DNA of 64,000 bases from Sphingosinicella flava (lineage in GTDB: Bacteria; Pseudomonadota; Alphaproteobacteria; Sphingomonadales; Sphingomonadaceae). The notes beneath the pieces were generated by a model, which worked only from the letters and a program-made list of their open reading frames with translations, was not told the DNA's origin and ran no database searches. Position 1 is the stretch's first letter; every line of letters starts with the position of its first letter. The stretch spans positions 1,903,122-1,967,121 of the forward strand of contig NZ_CP065592.1 of assembly GCF_016025255.1 (NCBI RefSeq), given 5' to 3'. The translations under genes were made by a program, and so were the position numbers. Shown here in pieces: positions 21,090 to 62,795 of the stretch.

Positions 21090-22304
21090 ATGTCGGAATT
21101 GGTAGTAGAAAAGGAGGAAAGAGCGTCCCCGGCTTTTTGGGTCGTTGCAATATTTTTGACCCTTCTCGTCTTCATTCATCACGATCTCCACAACGTCTTC
21201 AAGGAGTTCAGCCTATCTGTTGGGCGCGATGTTATCCTGGGGCGCGATTTCGCCAATGTGTTTACCGCAGGCCGTCTTCTTATCGAAGATAAGCTTGCAA
21301 TCATTTATGATATTGAGAGCTATCGAGCCTACCAAACTGGGTTGTTCGAAGGGGCAATCCGCGAACATAATTATTCCTACTCGCCAGTGTCGTTCCTTTA
21401 TGTTTGGCTGTTCGGGTTAATCCCCTATATCCTATCGTATATCCTTTGGACTGGGGCGACTGGTGCAGCCTTCATATGGGCGGCGCGTCCTTACATGAAG
21501 ACAGCGGGATTGCCGGCATGGGTAACGCTTTTGCTTCCCGCGTCGATCATCAATATCTGGGCCGGACATTATGGATTTCTGTTCGGAGCACTTTGGCTAG
21601 GTGCCTGGCGAATGCTTGACAGCCGCCCGCGAACCGCCGGCATGCTCGTCGGCTTCATGATCGTTAAACCGCATCTGGCAATTCTGATGCCCTTTGTCCT
21701 TGCAAGGCGGCGTGCTTGGATTCCGTTCGTGTATGCGGGTCTGACCGTGGCAGCGGCCATTGCCATATCGATTGTCTGTTTCGGAATCGAACCTTGGGTC
21801 ATTTACGTGACCAGAACCTCTTCTTTTCAGGCCTCATTGGTGGACGATATCAAGGCCTTCTTCGTCACGATGATGCCGACAGTCGCACCGATCCTGTTCC
21901 TGATGGAGCTTCCCGCGCCGTTGATCTGGACCATTCAAGCCATAGTATCGGCGGGAGCGTTCGCCGCAATTCTGCGCTTCTTGCCGAAGGATACAGAACG
22001 GGCAGGCTTCGCAACGGCATGCGCCACCTTCCTCGTACTGCCCTATGCCTTCATCTACGACATGACGATCATGAATGTCGCTGCCGCACTCATGCTGACT
22101 CAAATGCATCAAGACGACCGGCCTTGGCAGAGGGCGGCCGGTTACTTGGGATTCGTTTTGCCGCTCATCACGATCTTCCTTGGGCGGTGCGATATACCCC
22201 TAGCGCCAATAATCATCGCGATGCAATTTGTCGCTTTGCTGGTAAAAACGGCCCCTTTTACCTTGCCTCACGCCGTGCCAGCAGTCGCAGGCGCAGGGCG
22301 TTGA
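21090..22304 (+). CDS. GT87 (DUF2029) family membrane glycosyltransferase
   Basis: A 404-residue protein with about nine membrane helices. The early block [24 protein letters not shown] matches GT87/DUF2029 proteins, relatives of mycobacterial mannosyltransferases that use polyprenyl-phosphate sugars. [13 protein letters not shown] and [12 protein letters not shown] fit the same family. A strong AAGGGGAGAG ribosome site precedes the ATG. Base composition is visibly AT-richer than the flanks and the upstream 171-base gap is AT-rich with a small ATGCCC/GGGCAT hairpin. The 3' end overlaps argG by 47 bases, so the C-terminus may be extended relative to relatives. Confidence 0.85.
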
Positions 22305-54011: not shown

Positions 54012-55118
54012 CTAGAAGGAGCCGAAATCGAAGGCGTCGGCCAGGCCCTCCGCATCGCCCGGCGCCTGCATGGCCGACTGGCTCAGAAGGTCGAGGTCGA
54101 TCAGGCCGTAAGCCTCCATATGCCGGACGAGAAAGCTGTAATTGCGGTAGGACAGGAACATGATGCCGACCCCCAAGGTCACGATCACCAGGCCGATATT
54201 GCCGAGAATCAGCTTCACCCAATCCCAGGTGCGGGCGTTGAAATGGAAGTCGATGCCCGCGACCGACGTTGCTCCCGCACATATCCGGTAGAGAAGGGCA
54301 TAATAAGCGAGGCCGAGGATCAGGAAGAGGACGTAGGTGAGGACGAAGGCCGGGATCATCAGCATGAGAAGGCCAAGCACGGCGGACTCCGGCGAACCCT
54401 CCAGCGCCGCCGTTCCCGCGACCAGGCCTCCGGCGATCGTCAGCACGAGAAAGACGCCGAGCGGCAGGAAATAGACGAGCATCCAGCGCTTCATCAGCGG
54501 CTCGAAGAGGGCGTCGGCCGTAAAGGGGTGCGAGCCAAAGCTCATCCGGTTCCAGCGTGCGTTCCACAAGCTCGCCATCGACCAGGGCAGCAGCAGGCCC
54601 ATCGCCGCGATGCCGACGCCGTAACGCCACATCGCGGACAATCCGTAACGCCAACCCGGATCGGCGCTGCCGCCGCGTATGCCGTGCCAATAGGTGCGGC
54701 TCAGCTGATAGCGGAGCGCCCGAAAACGGGCGACGTTGAAGAGGTAGAGCAGGCCGATATAGATGAAGGCGGTGATCGCACCGCCCAGCAGCCATTCGCC
54801 GCGCAGGACCATCGCCTCCACGAAGACATTCAGGACCAGGATGCCGGGCAGGAAGGCGGCCATCACGATCAGGAAGCCGACGAACATTTCCTTGCCGGTG
54901 CCGGTCCATTCGAAAGTGTCGTCGATGAAGCGGGTGCGGCTCCACAAATAGCGCCGCTCCCGCGCCTTGGCCCAGAAACGGTAGATGCCGAGCGTGACGA
55001 TCGTCAGCGCCAGATTGGTGAGCGCGATCGGCAGGAATTCCCGCCAGGTGCCCGTGAACGCGAAGCTCGAAACGGGGCGGTCGCTCGCGGCGTCGATTTG
55101 CCCTTCGGCGCTGTTCAT
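54012..55118 (-). CDS. YjgN (DUF898) family membrane protein
   Basis: A 368-residue protein with about eight membrane helices. Repeated blocks such as FAFTGTWREFLPIALTNLALTIVTLGIYRFWAKARERRYLWSRTRF and the later NARTWDWVKLILGNIGLVIVTLGVGI show internal duplication of the DUF898 unit. Function unknown; YjgN has been linked to cell-envelope permeability in other bacteria. The next gene on the strand is the M48 peptidase, one base away. It diverges from thrS. Confidence 0.92.
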   Translation of the reverse strand: MNSAEGQIDAASDRPVSSFAFTGTWREFLPIALTNLALTIVTLGIYRFWAKARERRYLWSRTRFIDDTFEWTGTGKEMFVGFLIVMAAFLPGILVLNVFVEAMVLRGEWLLGGAITAFIYIGLLYLFNVARFRALRYQLSRTYWHGIRGGSADPGWRYGLSAMWRYGVGIAAMGLLLPWSMASLWNARWNRMSFGSHPFTADALFEPLMKRWMLVYFLPLGVFLVLTIAGGLVAGTAALEGSPESAVLGLLMLMIPAFVLTYVLFLILGLAYYALLYRICAGATSVAGIDFHFNARTWDWVKLILGNIGLVIVTLGVGIMFLSYRNYSFLVRHMEAYGLIDLDLLSQSAMQAPGDAEGLADAFDFGSF

Positions 55119-55181
55119 TCCTCATCCCCCCAAATGGTCCGGGCAGCCTGATCCGCATCGGCGGCGATGGCAAGAGCTTCC

Positions 55182-55209
55182 TTGACAGCGTTCCGCCCCC
55201 ATTTATGGC
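55182..55209 (+). promoter_or_regulatory. Predicted sigma-70-type promoter of thrS
   Basis: TTGACA (55182-55187) matches the -35 consensus; after 16 bases TATGGC (55204-55209) can act as -10. It lies 42 bases before the thrS start, between the divergent YjgN-like gene and thrS. Confidence 0.5.
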
Positions 55210-55251
55210 AGGGCCATTCCCTTTTCCCGCATGAAAGCGCCAAGGTTTCCC

Positions 55252-57252
55252 ATGTCCGAGATGTTCAAGATCGCCCTTCCCGACGGTTCCGTCCGCGAAG
55301 TGGCGCCGGGCACCACGCCGGGAGACGTCGCGGCGGCGATCGGGCCGGGCCTCGCCAAGGCGGCGATCGCGGCGCGGGTGAACGGCGAGCTGCGCGACAT
55401 CATGCGGCCGTTCGAAGGCGATTCCGATCTCGCGCTGGTGACGAGCCGCGACGAGGTGGACGCGCTGGAACTCGCCCGGCACGATTTCGCCCATATCCTC
55501 GCCGAGGCGGTGCAGAATTTGTATCCGGGGACGCAGATCACCTTCGGTCCGGCGACCGACGACGGCTTCTATTACGATTTCGCGCACAAGGGCCGGCCGT
55601 TCACCGACGAAGACCTGCCCGCCATCGAGGAAGAGATGCGGCGGATCATCCGGGCCGACCAGCCGCTGCGCCGCGAAGTGTGGACACGCGACGACCTGAT
55701 CGCCCGCTTCAAGGCCCAGGGCGAGACGTTCAAGGCCGAATGGGCGGCGGAGCTGCCGGAGGGCGAGGAGCTGACCGTCTATTGGTCGGGCGACAAATGG
55801 ATGGACATGTGCCGGGGGCCGCATCTCGCCTCGACCGGCAAATTGGATCCGCAGGCGTTCAAGTTGACGCGCGTGTCGGGCGCTTATTGGCGCGGCGACC
55901 AGAAGAATGCGATGCTCTCGCGCATCTACGGCACGGCGTGGCTCAACAAGAAGCAATTGGACGCGCACCTTCACCGGCTCGAGGAAGCGGCGAAGCGCGA
56001 TCACCGCAAGATCGGGCAGGAAATGGACCTTTTCCATCTCCAGCCCGAAGCGCAGGGATCGGTCTTCTGGCACCCCAAGGGCTGGGTGATCTGGCGGAGC
56101 CTCGAAGCCTATATGCGCCGCAGATTGGATGCGGCGGGCTATCAGGAGATCAAGACGCCGCAGCTGATGGACGCGCGGCTGTGGGAGCAATCCGGTCACT
56201 GGGGCAAATATCGCGAGAATATGTTCGTGGTGCCGGACGAAGTGCCCAATACCGATGAAGAAGGACCGGTGATTTCGGGCGAGGCGTCGTGGATGGCGCT
56301 CAAGCCCATGAACTGCCCGGCCCACGTCCAGGTCTTCCGCCAGGGCATCACATCCTATCGCGATCTGCCGATGCGCCTCGCCGAATTCGGCTGCTGCCAC
56401 AGGAACGAAGCGCATGGCGCGCTGCACGGTATCATGCGGGTGCGGCAATTCACGCAGGACGATGCGCATATCTTCTGCCGGCAGGATCAGCTGGTCGAGG
56501 AAGTGCGCGCCTTTTGCGACCTGCTCGACGCGGTCTATCGGGATCTCGGCTTCGAAAGCTATGCGATCAAGCTGGCGCTGCGGCCCGAAAAAAGGTTCGG
56601 GTCGGACGAAATGTGGGATTGGGCCGAGCAGAGCTTGCGCGACGCGGTCGCGGCGACCGGGCGCGCGACGCCTGAATTCGGATGGGAGGAACTGCCGGGC
56701 GAAGGCGCCTTCTACGCGCCGAAACTCGAATTCCACCTGACCGACGCGATCGGCCGGACCTGGCAGTGCGGCACGCTGCAGACGGACACGGTGCTGCCGG
56801 AACGGCTCGACGCGAGCTATGTCGGCGAGGACGGCCAGCGCCACCGTCCGGTCATGCTACACCGCGCCATTCTCGGCACGTTCGAGCGGTTCATCGGCAT
56901 CCTCATCGAGCATCATGCCGGGCGTTTCCCGCTCTGGCTCGCGCCGGTGCAGGCGGTGGTCGCGACCATCGTATCGGACGCCGACGATTATGCCGAAGAG
57001 GTGCGCGCGAAGCTCGCCGCCGCGGGACTGCGGATCGAAACCGACACGCGCAACGAGAAGATCAACTACAAGGTTCGCGAGCATAGCCTCGCCAAGGTTC
57101 CGGCCCTGCTGGTCGTCGGCAAGCGCGAGGCGGAAGAAGGCACGGTGGCCGTCCGCCGCCTGGGCCAGGACGGGCAGCAGGTGGTGAAGGTCGATGATCT
57201 CATCGCCATGCTCCGCGCCGAGGCGACACCGCCCGATCTGCGCGGTGTCTAG
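55252..57252 (+). CDS. thrS: Threonyl-tRNA synthetase
   Basis: ThrRS charges tRNA-Thr and edits mis-charged serine. The 666-residue product has the TGS domain (residues 1-62, [14 protein letters not shown]), the editing domain with [16 protein letters not shown] and [10 protein letters not shown], the class II core with [20 protein letters not shown] and [27 protein letters not shown] (separate blocks) and the anticodon domain. Start at 55252 has AAGG six bases upstream; an in-frame ATG at 55231 is possible. It is followed after 60 bases by the HNH-DGQHR gene rather than directly by infC. Confidence 0.97.
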
Positions 57253-57312
57253 CGCGACTTGCCTCGCCCGAATTATTGAAGCACCATTCCGACTCAAAGG
57301 GATGGAGGGGGA

Positions 57313-58929
57313 ATGTCTCTAGGGTTGCGGCAATTGTCGGCGGGGGACCGCAAAACGCTTATTCAGGAACTCTGGGCCTCGCAAAATGGGAAATGCTACA
57401 TTTCCGACAGCGCGATAGACCTCCTGCTGCACGAGCATGATCTGGACATAGATCATGTCATTCCCACTCGAGACGGCGGAAAAGACGACAAATCCAATTG
57501 GGCACTGACCTTCAGCAGCTATAATCGCAGCAAGCAAGCGTCCGATCTGCGAATCGCCAGAATCCTGGCAAGACTGGAAGCCATGCGTAGCGGTATCACC
57601 GATCCGCGAGGCATCAATCTCGGCCATATCCTCGATCATTCCCAAGGAGGCCGCCACCCGCTGAAGTTCCAGCTCTCGCAAGACAAAGCGGCGATCAGCT
57701 ATTCATATGCCGCTGTCGGCGATCCATCCATCCGGTCAGCGCCTCTATTCAGGGATAAATTGTCAGACCTCGAATATGTATTCCTCCACCTCCCGATCGA
57801 ATATCTATTTCACGACGACACGCTCAACCCCCGCGGCATAGGCAATAATATTCGAGGTCTCATCGAAGAATTTTTCCGCGGCTTCCCGCAATTGCATGTG
57901 CCTTTGGGATGGATCGACACCACGGAAGAGGGCGGTTCACGCGTTCGTATCTTCGATGGTCAGCATAAGGCTGCGGCCCAGATTCTCTTGGGCGTGCGTG
58001 CGCTCCCGATCCGCTTGTTCGTTAACCCCGACCGGGATCTCTTGCTGACCGCGAATACGCGAGCCGGGACGACGCTCCGGCAAGTTGCCTTTGACAAGGC
58101 CACGCAACGTCATCTTGGCGCGAGCATCTTGAGGGACAGGGTTCTAAGATTCCTATCGGATCGTCAGCATCCCAGCGATTATACGAGCTTCACCGAGCAG
58201 CAGCTCGTCGATCACTTCAAGGGCGAACAAGCGCAGATGAAGCGTTACATTATCGATGCGCAACGAAACGATGTCACCTACCATCCTGACAATAGACTGC
58301 GCGATTTCATTGAAATGGGCGGTAAGGGAACGGAACGACCTATTTCCTACAGCGCGGTCGAAAAAGCGATCTATTCGCAGATGATCTTTGGCGGAATGCT
58401 GGACACGCCAGCCGATTACAAATCGGAAGCCGGGGAAAATCCGCGCGATCTGGAGCGGGAACAGATTGTGCGTTTCCTGAATCTCGTCGCCGCCCACATC
58501 TATGTCGGATTTTATGACTTCGAGGTGGGGAGCGGCAAAATCGAAAGCAAGGTGCAAAAAGGCGAGGTAGTTCCCGACGAACATCTGCGTGCCCATCGCA
58601 TGGGCCGCGAGGAGATCCTTTATGCCTGGATCGAACTGGCGATGATCGTGTGCCAGACCAGCGTCATTGCAGGCGGAAAGACCTGGGATAAGGACCGGCC
58701 ATTTCATAAACCGTTGTCGGAACAGGTTTGGAAGAGCTTAGAGCATTTCGTGATCAATTTTTCACGGCTTCCGCTTTGGAAAAACCGTTCGTTGTCAGCC
58801 ACGATTTTCGGGGGCAAGCAGAATTTCCAATTCTGGAAAGATGCCTTTGCCACAGGCACGGCCAACGGCATCCACATTCTGGCGGGCGGTGGCGTAAGCC
58901 TTATCGACTTGATGAACGAGCCCTCTTAA
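57313..58929 (+). CDS. HNH-like nuclease fused to DGQHR-motif (DndB/DUF262-like) domain
   Basis: A 538-residue protein with two recognisable parts. Residues 13-80 resemble an HNH nuclease: CYISDSAID, DIDHVIPTRDGGKDDKSNWALTFSSYNRSKQ (His48, Asn62, Asn71), but only one of the usual four zinc Cys (Cys28) remains. Residues 205-260 contain FDGQHKAAAQILLG and LPIRLFVNPD, the motif of DGQHR proteins such as DndB and of the DUF262 ParB/Srx-like family. The rest is helical with no match I know. GC content is lower than in thrS and infC, which it separates. A strong GGAGGGGG ribosome site precedes the ATG. A modification-dependent nuclease or DNA-binding defence protein is an inference. Confidence 0.75.
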   Translation: MSLGLRQLSAGDRKTLIQELWASQNGKCYISDSAIDLLLHEHDLDIDHVIPTRDGGKDDKSNWALTFSSYNRSKQASDLRIARILARLEAMRSGITDPRGINLGHILDHSQGGRHPLKFQLSQDKAAISYSYAAVGDPSIRSAPLFRDKLSDLEYVFLHLPIEYLFHDDTLNPRGIGNNIRGLIEEFFRGFPQLHVPLGWIDTTEEGGSRVRIFDGQHKAAAQILLGVRALPIRLFVNPDRDLLLTANTRAGTTLRQVAFDKATQRHLGASILRDRVLRFLSDRQHPSDYTSFTEQQLVDHFKGEQAQMKRYIIDAQRNDVTYHPDNRLRDFIEMGGKGTERPISYSAVEKAIYSQMIFGGMLDTPADYKSEAGENPRDLEREQIVRFLNLVAAHIYVGFYDFEVGSGKIESKVQKGEVVPDEHLRAHRMGREEILYAWIELAMIVCQTSVIAGGKTWDKDRPFHKPLSEQVWKSLEHFVINFSRLPLWKNRSLSATIFGGKQNFQFWKDAFATGTANGIHILAGGGVSLIDLMNEPS

Positions 58930-59061
58930 GGGGCACGCGCAATCTTCGGCGCTACACATTATGGCGCGAAATCTGAAGCGGCCTGGCGGCTGCATCTTCC
59001 AATTCCTCGCGTCAGCGACTAGGTGAAGGCCTGTCCTTCTGAACCACATGGAGATTGTGCT

Positions 59062-59604
59062 ATACGTCCCCCTCTGAACCGGCGCCCGATGGCGCCGCCC
59101 ATGAATGGCCCCCGCTATAACGAGTTCATTCAGTCTCCAAAGGTGCGCGTCATCGATGGAGATGGCGAGAATCTGGGTGTGATGTTCACGCGTGAGGCGA
59201 TTGAGCAGGCGGCGGAAGTCGGCCTCGACCTCGTCGAAGTGTCGCCCAACGCCGACCCGCCCGTCGCCAAATTTTTGGACGTAGGCAAATATAAATACGA
59301 GGCGCAGAAAAAGGCGAACCTCGCCCGCAAGAGCCAGAAGACGCAGGAGATCAAGGAGATCAAGATGCGTCCCAATATCGACGATCACGATTACGACGTG
59401 AAGATGAAGTCGATCCACAAGTTCATCGGCGAAGGCGACAAGGTGAAGGTAACCTTGCGCTTCCGTGGCCGCGAGCTCGCTCACGGGCAGCTCGGCATGC
59501 AACTCCTTCAGCGCGTCCAGGCCGATACCGAAGCCGATGCGAAGGTCGAGCAGCATCCGCGCATGGAAGGCCGCCAGATGCTGATGGTGCTCGCGCCGAA
59601 ATAA
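59062..59604 (+). CDS. infC: Translation initiation factor IF-3
   Basis: IF-3 controls start-codon selection by binding the 30S subunit. The C-terminal 170 residues are clear: [69 protein letters not shown] and [12 protein letters not shown]. The start is uncertain. ATG 59089 has no ribosome site, and family members begin with RRPM just upstream of it. ATA 59062 has GGAG (59050-59053) eight bases upstream, so I chose it; IF-3 genes often use rare start codons for autoregulation (AUU in E. coli). GTG 59023 is less likely. A terminator follows. Confidence 0.95.
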
Positions 59605-59638
59605 GGGCTTAGCCCATCGCCGATGCTCTCAAAGGGCG

Positions 59639-59677
59639 GGCGGAAGAGGTCTTTCAGGCTTCTCGTCCGCCTTTTTT
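59639..59677 (+). terminator. Intrinsic terminator after infC
   Basis: GGCGGA (59639-59644) pairs with TCCGCC (59666-59671), with further GAG/CTC pairing inside after one mismatch, followed by six T residues (59672-59677). It starts 35 bases after the infC stop. Confidence 0.8.
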
Positions 59678-59702
59678 CATGCTGCACATGCGAATTGCCG
59701 CC

Positions 59703-59846
59703 CCGGCAGGATATGGCGGCTTTGGCGCTTTCCGTAACGGCAAGCTGCACGGGGTGCCTTCTAGCCAGTTTTCGTTTGAAACTATCTTGTTGCGAATTTG
59801 CAATGAATCCTGCGAAAGCGGCGCGATTCCGCCATTATCCTGCTGG
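59703..59846. repeat. Long-range imperfect inverted repeat upstream of the TonB receptor
   Basis: CCGGCAGGATATGGCGG (59703-59719) faces CCGCCATTATCCTGCTGG (59829-59846), with one extra base and one mismatch; the pairing can be extended inward by a CGCTTTC/GAAAGCG match. The 109-base interior is AT-rich for this genome. It lies between the infC terminator and the receptor start (232-base gap) and may be regulatory or a small element remnant. Confidence 0.45.
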
Positions 59847-59909
59847 CTGACCCCCTTTCTTTTCGATAGGCTCCCTTCAAAAGAAACCAATTTCAGTTGG
59901 GAGAGGGCA

Positions 59910-62795
59910 ATGACGAAATCAATTTGGTTGCTGTCGGCGGGGGCGCTGGCGATGTCCGTGCCGGCTTACGCGCAGGACAATAGCAGCGAGACGAGCCAGA
60001 CCACCGTCACCGAACAATCCGCCGCGGTTCAGCAGGACCAGGATATCGACGAAGCCAACGACATCATCGTTACCGCGCAAGGCCGTGAGCAGATTCTGCA
60101 AGACGTGCCGCTGGCGGTGAACGTCGTGGATGCCGAAGCCCTGCAGAATTCGGGGGCGACCGATATCCGCGCGCTCAACCAGCTCGCGCCGTCGCTTCTC
60201 GTCTCGTCGACGGGTTCTGAATCGAACGGTTCCGCCCGTATCCGCGGCATCGGCACGGTCGGCGACAATCCCGGCCTCGAAAGCTCGGTCGCCGTGTTCA
60301 TCGACGGCGTCTACCGCTCGCGCACCGGCATCGGCCTCAACGAGCTTGGCGAGATCGACCGCGTCGAAGTGCTGCGCGGGCCGCAGGGTACCCTCTTCGG
60401 CCGCAATGCGTCGGCGGGCATTCTCAACATCGTGTCGAAGAAGCCGAACCTCAACGCGATGGAAGGCTATGGCGAGTTCACCTACGGCAATTACGACCTG
60501 CTCCGCCTCGGCGCAGGCATAACCGGACCGATCGGAGAGAGCGGCCTTGGCTATCGCCTGGACGGCGTCTGGGTGCAGCGCGACGGCTATTTGAAGGTCA
60601 ACGATCCGCAGGGCGGCACCGAAAGCCGCCTCAACGACCGCGACCGCTATTTCGTGCGCGGACAGCTGTCCTATGAGCCGAGCAGCGATTTCGAAGTCCG
60701 CTTGATCGGCGATTATTCCAAGCGCGATGAAAGCTGCTGCGGCGCCGTCTATCTCGAAACGCGGGAAACCTACGATCCGACCCCAGGCGTGGCGGGCGAC
60801 TATGCCTATCGCCCCACGAACCGCATCGTGAATATCCTGCAGGCATTGGGCGAAACCTTCCCCAACAGCGTGAACGGCAATCCTTACCGCCAGAACCCGT
60901 ACAACCGTGTCGCATCCGTGACGCCGGGCCGGACCTATCGCAACGAGACCGAGGATTACGGCTTGTCGGGACAGATCGATTGGGATGCCGGCTTCGGCAC
61001 CCTCACCTCGATCACCGCCTATCGCGGCTACAAGGCTGGCGGTGCGGGGGACATCGACTATGGCCGCGCCGACATCGCCTATCGCCCGGCGGATGGGAAC
61101 AATTTCAGGAAGTTCGAGACGTTCAGCCAGGAGCTGCGGCTCCAGGGATCGGCGTTCGAGGACAGGCTCGACTGGCTGGTCGGCGCTTATTTCGCCAATG
61201 AAGACCTGCACGTCGCCGATAACACGCGATTCGGCGAAGATTATGGGGCATTCGCCGCCTGCCGCGTTGTGGCAGGCCTTAACAATCCGGCTTTGGTTCG
61301 CGTTGGCCGACCCGGTTGCGTGAGCACTGAGCAAGTTCCTGGTTTTCCAATCAACTACCGACAGGCACTGGCAGGTCAGATTGCGGGCCTTGCTGGCGGT
61401 GGTGCGACAGGCTTAGCGCGCGCGGGGACAATCTTGAGTGGCCTCGATCGCTTGGGCTTCGTCAGCGATGTGGGCGATATTCGTGCGAATTATTATCAGG
61501 ACAGCACCAATTATGCGTTCTTTACGCACAATATTTTCAACATCACGGATCAGCTGAGTGTCACGCTCGGCCTCCGCTACACGAACGAGAACAAGAAATT
61601 CCGGGCGGATTTCAACAACAACAATGCGGCATGCCCGGCCCAACAGGCATCCTTGCTGCCGCTTCTCGCTCAGATCAGCGCCGATCCGACGCTGACCGCG
61701 GCCAATCGCGCGCAATTGCAGCAGGTCGTGGGCGGGATCGTAACCCTGACCTGCCAAGGCAATTCCAGCACATCGCTCAACGGTCTCGATCTCAGCGACG
61801 AGTTTGACGACGGCGAGCTGACTGGTACCGGCATCCTTTCGTTCAAGCCGACCGAAGACCTGATGACCTATGCCAGCTATTCGAAGGGCTATAAGGCGGG
61901 CGGCTACAATCTTGACCGCTCGGCGCTCGGCACCCGCCCGGTGGGCGCCAACCCGACGCTTGGCATTCGCGACAATGGCGACGTCGAAGATCTGCGCTTC
62001 GCGGCGGAGAAGGTCGACGCATATGAAATCGGCTTCAAATATGGCGGCCGCGGCTTCACGCTGAACGTCGCCGGTTTCTGGCAGGAGTTCAAAAACTTCC
62101 AGCTCAACACCTTCAACGGATCGGTGTTCATCGTCCAGAATATCGGATCCTGCGCGGACGATCTGGGCGGCGGCGACCGCGACGCGTCGGCGGCGACCGG
62201 CGCCTGCTCGGGCGACAAGAAAGCGGGCGTGCGCTCGCGCGGGGTCGAGGTTGAAGCCTCGCTTCGCCCGTCGCGCGATCTCAATGTCAATCTCGGCTAT
62301 ACCTACGCCCAGACCAAGTACCGGAACAACCTGACCGGTGCGGGCACCGATCCGCTCGATCCGTTCCTGTTCCTGCTGCCGGGCGACAATGTATCGAACG
62401 CGCCGGAGCATGTCGTGACGACGTCCGTCTCCTGGACGCCGGAAATCGGCAATAGCGGCCTCACCGGCCTCGTCTATGTCGATAGCCGCATGACGTCGGA
62501 CTATAATACCGGCTCCGACCTATTCCCGGAAAAGGAACAGGACGGCTATGCGGTCGTCAACGCCCGCATCGGCGTGCGGGGCCCGGACGAGCGCTGGGCG
62601 GTGGAACTTTGGGCGCAGAATTTGCTGGACGAGGAATATCAGCAGGTTGCGTTCAATTCGCCGTTCCAGGGCGCGAACAGCCGGGCGCAGGTCGCGGCTT
62701 TCGGGGCACCAGGCTTCGCCACGGCGAACCAGCTCTTCTCGACCTACCTGGCCGAGCCGCGTACCTACGGTCTGACGGTTCGCGGCCGCTTCTAA
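59910..62795 (+). CDS. TonB-dependent outer-membrane receptor
   Basis: A 961-residue receptor. The signal peptide is MTKSIWLLSAGALAMSVPAYA; a Gln/Glu-rich linker leads to the TonB box region EANDIIVTAQ. The plug follows (QDVPLAVNVVDAEAL, IRGIGTVGDN, VEVLRGPQGTLFGRNASAGILN) and the 22-strand barrel ends in LTVRGRF. It resembles sphingomonad receptors for siderophores or plant- or carbohydrate-derived compounds; the ligand is not predictable. Bases of about 61265-61770, encoding a Gly/Ala-rich extracellular loop, use AT-richer codons. GGGAGAGG precedes the ATG. Confidence 0.95.
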   Translation: MTKSIWLLSAGALAMSVPAYAQDNSSETSQTTVTEQSAAVQQDQDIDEANDIIVTAQGREQILQDVPLAVNVVDAEALQNSGATDIRALNQLAPSLLVSSTGSESNGSARIRGIGTVGDNPGLESSVAVFIDGVYRSRTGIGLNELGEIDRVEVLRGPQGTLFGRNASAGILNIVSKKPNLNAMEGYGEFTYGNYDLLRLGAGITGPIGESGLGYRLDGVWVQRDGYLKVNDPQGGTESRLNDRDRYFVRGQLSYEPSSDFEVRLIGDYSKRDESCCGAVYLETRETYDPTPGVAGDYAYRPTNRIVNILQALGETFPNSVNGNPYRQNPYNRVASVTPGRTYRNETEDYGLSGQIDWDAGFGTLTSITAYRGYKAGGAGDIDYGRADIAYRPADGNNFRKFETFSQELRLQGSAFEDRLDWLVGAYFANEDLHVADNTRFGEDYGAFAACRVVAGLNNPALVRVGRPGCVSTEQVPGFPINYRQALAGQIAGLAGGGATGLARAGTILSGLDRLGFVSDVGDIRANYYQDSTNYAFFTHNIFNITDQLSVTLGLRYTNENKKFRADFNNNNAACPAQQASLLPLLAQISADPTLTAANRAQLQQVVGGIVTLTCQGNSSTSLNGLDLSDEFDDGELTGTGILSFKPTEDLMTYASYSKGYKAGGYNLDRSALGTRPVGANPTLGIRDNGDVEDLRFAAEKVDAYEIGFKYGGRGFTLNVAGFWQEFKNFQLNTFNGSVFIVQNIGSCADDLGGGDRDASAATGACSGDKKAGVRSRGVEVEASLRPSRDLNVNLGYTYAQTKYRNNLTGAGTDPLDPFLFLLPGDNVSNAPEHVVTTSVSWTPEIGNSGLTGLVYVDSRMTSDYNTGSDLFPEKEQDGYAVVNARIGVRGPDERWAVELWAQNLLDEEYQQVAFNSPFQGANSRAQVAAFGAPGFATANQLFSTYLAEPRTYGLTVRGRF

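What the first reader, a model, noticed from the sequence alone, without database searches (positions are those of the whole stretch)
57313..58929. HNH plus DGQHK-domain protein inserted between thrS and infC
The sequence shows an N-terminal HNH-like block with only one of the usual zinc Cys residues, then a DGQHK motif domain and a long unassigned C-terminal region. Established: GmrSD, BrxU and SspE place a DUF262 (DGQQR) domain first and an HNH/DUF1524 domain last; DndB has a DGQHR motif without a nuclease. Here the order is reversed and the motif is of the DndB type. thrS and infC are often neighbours, and this gene is less GC-rich than either. Inference: a single-gene modification-dependent nuclease or a phage-defence protein not yet described.
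Basis: partly seen in the sequence, partly recalled or inferred. Interest (0 to 1): 0.8.

Follow-up and report, generated by a model that had tools for sequence, protein, structure and literature searches.

The report
Wandering HNH–ParB-fold nuclease gene
A single gene slipped between two core translation genes encodes a probable DNA-cutting enzyme fused to a nucleotide-binding switch domain; relatives are scattered across bacteria, archaea and viral contigs, often beside restriction enzymes, so it is probably an undescribed kind of phage-defence nuclease.

Summary
ORF 57313-58929 (538 aa), between thrS and infC, starts with an HNH domain (D47/H48/N62/N71, one zinc-type Cys), has FDGQHK at 214-219 and an unassigned C-terminus. 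It is GC-poor (53.9% against 64.8%). AlphaFold2 and Foldseek give Cas9-type HNH and ParB/sulfiredoxin folds; the helical C-terminal half has no credible PDB match. The DGQHK region resembles DndB (92%), DUF262 hardly (5.5%, three sequences). The gene is sporadic (1 of 26 congeneric genomes) and its relatives cross phyla and domains. Of 18 members, 8 lie within 5 kb of profile-confirmed defence genes, including HsdM/Bpu10I/HsdR and MvaI/PifA; the window copy does not stand among these. Best explanation: an NTP-gated HNH restriction nuclease working on the SspE/GmrSD principle, with reversed domain order, a Lys-ending DndB-type motif and an unmatched C-terminal domain. Target, NTP and modification dependence are untested. 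New variant of a known kind; not a member of GmrSD/SspE or DndB. ParB-fold/HNH fusions as a class are already in print (PMC12704722, passages).

The parts
57313..58929 (+). whole gene: HNH - ParB/Srx-like (DGQHK) - helical C-terminal protein, 538 aa
   Evidence: relatives; dN/dS 0.12 against L002, dS 1.76
57313..57597 (+). HNH nuclease domain, about residues 1-95; D47 H48 N62 N71
   Evidence: PF01844; Cas9 HNH by sequence and by fold (8f43, prob 1.00); the four residues are invariant in A4, 11 sequences; the boundary is read from the model
57640..58059 (+). ParB/sulfiredoxin-like domain, about residues 110-249
   Evidence: AF2 model; Foldseek to Srx (3cyi, 1xw4, prob 1.00) and ParB/Noc/PadC; boundaries read from the secondary structure, Foldseek did not print aligned ranges
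57799..57834 (+). conserved EYLFHDD-x2-NPR stretch (residues 163-174), proposed equivalent of ParB box I (inference)
   Evidence: D168 and R174 invariant in A2, 12 sequences
57952..57969 (+). FDGQHK signature (residues 214-219), proposed NTP-phosphate site (inference)
   Evidence: invariant in A2; DGQHK in 15 of 15; strand 211-215 then helix 217-225 in the model
58096..58926 (+). C-terminal helical region, residues 262-538, no known fold found
   Evidence: AF2 pLDDT 88.3, pTM 0.88; best of 24 Foldseek hits E 2.9, prob 0.02
57304..57312 (+). GGAGGGGGA directly upstream of the ATG, ribosome-binding-type stretch
   Evidence: read from sequence; no test
55231..57252 (+). thrS, left flank (context)
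59023..59604 (+). infC, right flank (context)

Best explanation
It is a horizontally moving, single-gene restriction factor. Shown here: an HNH domain with its catalytic-type residues conserved, a predicted ParB/sulfiredoxin-type domain carrying a DndB-like DGQHK signature, and a helical C-terminal region, kept under purifying selection and found repeatedly among restriction genes. Inferred: the DGQHK domain binds, and probably hydrolyses, an NTP; recognition of foreign DNA, most likely a DNA modification or another non-self state, by the ParB-like and/or C-terminal domain throws that switch; this releases the HNH domain to nick or cut the DNA. That is the recognise-hydrolyse-activate logic reported for SspE, rebuilt with the nuclease at the N-terminus. 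No methyltransferase gene adjoins the window copy, so self-avoidance would have to come from needing a mark or signal that the host lacks.
For: HNH: Pfam, PDB-sequence and fold matches; D47/H48/N62/N71 invariant in A4. ParB/Srx fold: sulfiredoxin, ParB, Noc and PadC among the top Foldseek rows. DndB link: hhalign prob 92.1, E 6.4e-7; 50 column-shuffled controls reach at most 0.43, reversed 0.07. Profile-confirmed defence genes within 5 kb in 8 of 18 members. Sporadic, cross-domain distribution. dN/dS 0.12 (window-L002) and 0.04 (L007-L008). Precedent: SspE GTP hydrolysis, dependent on its DGQQR Arg, licenses a C-terminal HNH (PMC13251355, abstract and passages).
Against: No direct functional evidence. 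In 9 of 18 members I saw no defence gene close by, among them the window copy and its two nearest relatives L002 and L003. Foldseek E-values are modest (best 3.3e-3, 0 of 271 hits at or below 0.001). With the pentapeptide masked the DndB probability falls to 18%, and no member scanned matches the DndB or ParBc Pfam models. The Lys where SspE needs Arg could change or abolish hydrolysis. One viral member sits before a terminase gene, which would also fit a phage packaging role. Window-L002 dS is near saturation and window-L003 dS could not be computed.
Confidence: 0.6

Rival explanations
1. A free-standing homing-type or phage-derived HNH endonuclease gene that spreads selfishly or helps packaging, with the ParB-like domain only guiding DNA binding.
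For: HNH domain; one viral relative lies after a resolvase and before a terminase gene (L016); in the window, L002, L003 and L008 the gene sits alone among what look like housekeeping genes.
Against: Members lie in unrelated places, 8 of 18 near defence genes; no intron, intein or shared target site was noticed, though none was searched for. The pattern scans of the viral collection confirmed 2 contigs whose match includes the FDGQHK domain, and the phage and plasmid records gave none.
Confidence: 0.15
2. An abortive-infection or NTP-depleting effector: the ParB/Srx domain hydrolyses nucleotides, or the HNH cuts host DNA, once infection is sensed.
For: Such roles are proposed for DndB and ParB-superfamily proteins (PMC10853773, passages); PifA, TIR and OLD-type genes are among the neighbours.
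Against: No conserved partner gene was seen beside the members compared; the conserved HNH residues suggest a DNA target.
Confidence: 0.15
3. A DndB-like regulator or accessory of DNA phosphorothioation.
For: Profile similarity to DndB around the motif.
Against: No PF14072 match in the window genome; no dnd-type gene among the neighbours scanned, though dnd and ssp genes as such were not searched for genome-wide; DndB is known (recalled, and as the finding says) without a nuclease domain.
Confidence: 0.04
4. A cellular repair or metabolic enzyme inherited vertically.
For: Solo position between housekeeping genes in the window.
Against: 1 of 26 congeneric genomes; the tree mixes phyla and domains, with an archaeal member 64% identical to a verrucomicrobial one.
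Confidence: 0.03

Closest known systems
SspE (DUF262/DGQQR-HNH, Ssp phosphorothioate defence)
   Same: ParB-superfamily NTPase-type domain plus HNH domain in one protein (PMC13251355); proposed NTP-gated nuclease
   Different: SspE has DUF262 first and HNH last, with DGQQR; here HNH is first, the motif is DGQHK, and the profile match to DUF262 is weak (5.5%, only three sequences). ssp genes were not searched for specifically
GmrSD (DUF262-DUF1524, type IV restriction); BrxU (recalled as of this kind)
   Same: ParB/Srx-fold domain plus HNH with D-H-N-N type residues, found in defence islands (PMC4619093, passages)
   Different: Order reversed; no GmrSD_N (PF03235) match and no DUF1524 match in the Pfam scans; C-terminal helical region unmatched
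DndB (PF14072, DGQHR domain)
   Same: Signature region aligns at 92% probability over 39 columns
   Different: No PF14072 match; carries an HNH domain; Lys replaces Arg; no dnd context seen among the neighbours scanned
ParB-CTPase-fold/HNH fusions (PF02195 with PF01844) mentioned in PMC12704722
   Same: Same two fold classes in one protein (passages)
   Different: This family is not detected by PF02195; the passages I saw give no function for the HNH fusions, and whether the survey holds this family was not checked (supplements not read)
Cas9, IscB and PtuB HNH domains
   Same: HNH domain by sequence and fold
   Different: Matches cover only the HNH stretch

Membership tests
GmrSD/SspE (DUF262-HNH) | DUF262 (PF03235) domain with DGQQR | tested here: not met
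   No Pfam match in the window protein or the other 11 members scanned; hhalign prob 5.5% against three DUF262 proteins, a shallow test; motif is DGQHK
GmrSD/SspE (DUF262-HNH) | HNH domain C-terminal | tested here: not met
   HNH is N-terminal
GmrSD/SspE (DUF262-HNH) | modification-dependent, NTP-coupled cleavage | not testable with these tools
   needs biochemistry
DndB (PF14072) | match to the DndB profile | tested here: not met
   No PF14072 match by hmmscan at E up to 1; none in G000
DndB (PF14072) | DGQHR signature region | tested here: inconclusive
   hhalign prob 92% over 39 columns, 18% with the motif masked; Lys for Arg
DndB (PF14072) | genomic link to dnd genes | tested here: inconclusive
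   none among the selected neighbours scanned; dnd genes not searched for otherwise
ParB/sulfiredoxin fold superfamily | ParB/Srx fold | tested here: met
   On a predicted model: the ParB and Srx rows among the best 33 have prob 0.75-1.00, best E 3.3e-3; the Pfam ParBc model does not match
ParB/sulfiredoxin fold superfamily | NTP binding | not testable with these tools
   needs a binding assay
HNH endonucleases (PF01844) | HNH motif with catalytic His and Asn | tested here: met

The most novel reading that the evidence does not exclude
A previously unnamed class of one-gene antiviral nuclease, spread through bacteria, archaea and mobile DNA, in which an N-terminal Cas9-type HNH is gated by a DndB-type ParB/Srx NTPase with an invariant DGQHK (Lys) signature and a C-terminal helical sensor of unseen fold. 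It would have evolved separately from the DUF262-HNH (GmrSD/SspE) line and arrived at the same 'NTP switch plus HNH' solution with reversed architecture.
Probability: 0.45. Interest if true: 0.72.

Novelty: new variant of a known kind. Interest (0 to 1): 0.58.

Why it matters
If right, it adds a compact, easily testable one-gene defence family of which Pfam, NCBIfam and PADLOC, as searched, recognise only the HNH part. It would test whether ParB/Srx NTP switches were recruited more than once to license HNH nucleases, and whether a Lys can stand in for the Arg reported as essential in SspE. The unmatched C-terminal domain may be a new sensor of foreign or modified DNA.

Tried and rejected
Ordinary-enzyme reading: rejected on distribution. 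CRISPR reading suggested by Cas9-named hits: rejected, only the HNH segment matches. GmrSD/SspE membership: rejected by the tests above. Phage and plasmid record searches gave no match. Rfam scan of 54500-60000: 0 matches. Promoter/terminator scan uninformative: 2 promoter-like sites, both on the other strand, against 1.5 expected; 0 terminators against 2.3 expected. Foldseek with the C-terminal half gave no credible fold. Rows dropped before counting members: 20 viral loci (L017-L036) that match only in HNH-size stretches, and the hit in G017 (residues 16-76, in a 1151-aa frame). L003 and G059 were counted as one: both contigs are 769,987 bases long. The first gene list took antisense frames in some GC-rich loci; later lists used a GC-position rule. 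A translation of L004 was in the wrong frame and was not used.

Full report
What is there. The ORF at 57313-58929 (+) encodes 538 residues; 60 bp separate it from the thrS stop, and infC follows. Pfam finds an HNH domain (PF01844, E 1.7e-5, above cut-off) at residues 42-74, two weaker HNH models below their cut-offs, and nothing else. NCBIfam and PADLOC hits on the window protein are the HNH parts of Cas9, IscB and PtuB models. Against solved structures the family profile matches the end of a maturase reverse transcriptase (E 3.2e-11) and Cas9 HNH domains (E 2.3e-6 and weaker). D47, H48, N62 and N71 are invariant in the 11-sequence alignment A4; their spacings of 14 and 9 equal those I recall for Cas9 H840, N854 and N863 (recalled, not from a call). 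Of the zinc-type cysteines only C28 remains in the window copy; 7 of 15 members compared have CFIC.

Fold. AlphaFold2 on A4 gives mean pLDDT 84.9, pTM 0.73. Foldseek against PDB puts human sulfiredoxin with ATP:Mg first (E 3.3e-3, prob 1.00), with ParB-family proteins (pNOB8-like ParB-N, PadC, Noc, Caulobacter and Myxococcus ParB) and Cas9 HNH domains behind; 0 of 271 hits reach E 0.001. Against viral models 3 of 498 hits reach E 0.001 (a helicase-named protein, an unnamed one, an occlusion protein); further down, several are named ParB/Sulfiredoxin, HNH or sulfur-modification proteins. In the model FDGQHK lies at the end of a strand (211-215) and the start of a helix (217-225). That this corresponds to the sulfiredoxin signature loop is inference, following the GmrS argument in PMC4619093 (passages seen). 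The C-terminal 277 residues, modelled alone, give pLDDT 88.3 and pTM 0.88, and the best of 24 PDB matches has E 2.9.

Which ParB/Srx branch. hhalign of the core (residues 100-290 of A2) against four proteins from the PF14072 (DndB) search gives probability 92.1, E 6.4e-7 over 39 columns; a second query (A3, divergent members) gives 85.1. Against three DUF262 proteins the values are 5.5 and 1.0; seven DUF262 loci were fetched and in only three did the script find a DGQQR frame, so this side is shallow. E-values are for one comparison. Of 50 column-shuffled DndB controls the best probability was 0.43; reversed 0.07; with the pentapeptide masked 18.0; no such controls were run for DUF262. DGQHK, with Lys, is in 15 of 15 members compared. 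In SspE the Arg of DGQQR is essential for GTP hydrolysis (PMC13251355: abstract and passages), so the fixed Lys is a real point of difference.

Site and spread. The window genome has one copy. In its genus 1 of 26 genomes has it. In the order sample 5 of 396 genomes match, the window genome included; one of the five is a bare HNH hit (G017) and one a divergent member (G315). Other samples: 2 of 240, one already known; 6 of 294, two already known; own phylum 2 of 398, both known. In 24 congeneric genomes with a returned infC locus thrS precedes infC in all 24: 18 with at most 276 bp between the matched cores, 2 with 389 and 627 bp, and 4 with 1.3-2.0 kb; what fills these four was judged by eye: a membrane protein on the other strand in two, a cupin-like and a TAT-signal protein, and a VapBC-like pair. 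The nearest relative G172 (infC 96%, thrS 92% aa) has the site without the gene. A MAG, L002 (its genus was not established), has a 73% identical gene at the same site with an extra ORF. Synonymous divergence of the gene between window and L002 (dS 1.76) exceeds that of thrS (0.70), which fits separate arrival or replacement at a shared hot spot better than plain descent, although dS is near saturation and only one core gene was compared. In the FastTree of 15 members an archaeal member (L101) is 64% identical to a verrucomicrobial one (L005) and 65% to another archaeal one (L006), and a same-order relative (L082) groups with the Clostridia/Bacillota pair (support 0.974); the window-L002 branch itself has low support (0.437).

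Neighbours. I counted 18 distinct members: window, L002-L009, L016, L082, L083, L099-L104. L083, L099 and L100 are divergent (18-22% identical to the window protein). Seven are truncated, decayed or cut by contig ends (L004, L007, L008, L009, L082, L102, L103). Profile-confirmed defence genes lie within 5 kb in 8 of 18: L005 HsdM - this gene - N6_N4 methylase - Bpu10I - HsdR; L101 N6_N4 methylase (type III-like, my reading) - 136-aa ORF - this gene - ResIII; L083 C5 methylase, Vsr, MvaI/BcnI - this gene - PifA/KAP; L104 type IIG enzyme; L100 Eco57I-type enzyme and AlbA_2; L006 BrxD/SngB-like ATPases and an OLD-type ATPase, with a BrxHI/SngC-like helicase at 6 kb; L004 TIR/ThsB, Abi_2, YhcG (the gene there carries a stop in its HNH part); L102 TIR and type ISP (PADLOC was run for part of these). 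L009 shows what look like the same helicase and ATPase genes as L006, not scanned. In the other 9 (window, L002, L003, L007, L008, L016, L082, L099, L103) I saw none close by; these were judged mostly from ORF lists, several contigs are short, and L103 has a methylase-like ORF 7 kb away. The rest of the 64-kb window was not scanned for defence genes. For scale, PF02384 methylases number 47 in 99 genomes of the order, roughly 0.15 per Mb at about 3.2 Mb a genome, so one within about 12 kb by chance is of order 0.002 per gene; 2 of 18 members have one at E <= 1e-10 (L005, L100). This control is rough: one family, one order, while the members come from many groups.

Mechanism. Shown: conserved HNH residues, a predicted ParB/Srx fold, selection, mobility and context. 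Inferred: NTP binding at DGQHK, sensing by the ParB-like or C-terminal domain, and release of HNH cutting. Dual ATP/GTP binding by a DndB-like protein is reported in PMC12704722 (passages), and SspE gives the precedent for coupling. Modification dependence is the simplest way for a solo gene to spare its host, but nothing here tests it.

Novelty. Searches for DGQHR, DGQQR with HNH (40), HNH with ParB, sulfiredoxin and restriction (43), HNH/DndB/ParB/defense from 2018 (72, 20 of 28 papers listed), HNH with 'DGQHR domain' (74), DGQHK (89) and ParB-HNH phrases (90) showed no description of this family; I saw listings, and passages of five papers. The library lacks most subscription papers and all bioRxiv preprints. 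PMC12704722 calls ParB-CTPase/HNH fusions novel (passages only), so the combination as such is in print.

Noticed in passing
window 59050-59110: infC shows no ATG where its conserved N-terminus begins; an in-frame ATA (59062) follows a GGAG stretch (59050), and both are conserved in the nearest relative. It may use an unusual start codon, as E. coli infC is recalled to do.
   Followed up: partly
thrS-infC interval in congeneric genomes (L067, L068, L069, L074): The interval is a variable insertion site: 4 of 24 genomes hold 1.3-2.0 kb of other sequence, by eye a VapBC-like pair, a membrane protein, and a TAT-signal protein resembling one in L002.
   Followed up: partly
window 21090-22304: Another GC-poor ORF (53.3%, the lowest of 37 in the window), by eye a membrane protein.
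   Followed up: no
L083 3755-13326: Compact island in a same-family genome: integrase, C5 methylase, Vsr, MvaI/BcnI enzyme, divergent HNH-DGQHK gene, PifA-like KAP ATPase.
   Followed up: partly
L006 276-7057, and L009: Archaeal BREX/Shango-like helicase and BrxD/SngB-type ATPase genes and an OLD-type ATPase next to the HNH-DGQHK gene (L009 by ORF list only).
   Followed up: partly
L004 before 8064; L082 7363-9727: Decayed copies: a stop inside the HNH part in Spirosoma, and a copy split around transposase-like ORFs.
   Followed up: no
L016 3128-7986: A viral contig carries the gene between a resolvase and a terminase large-subunit gene.
   Followed up: no
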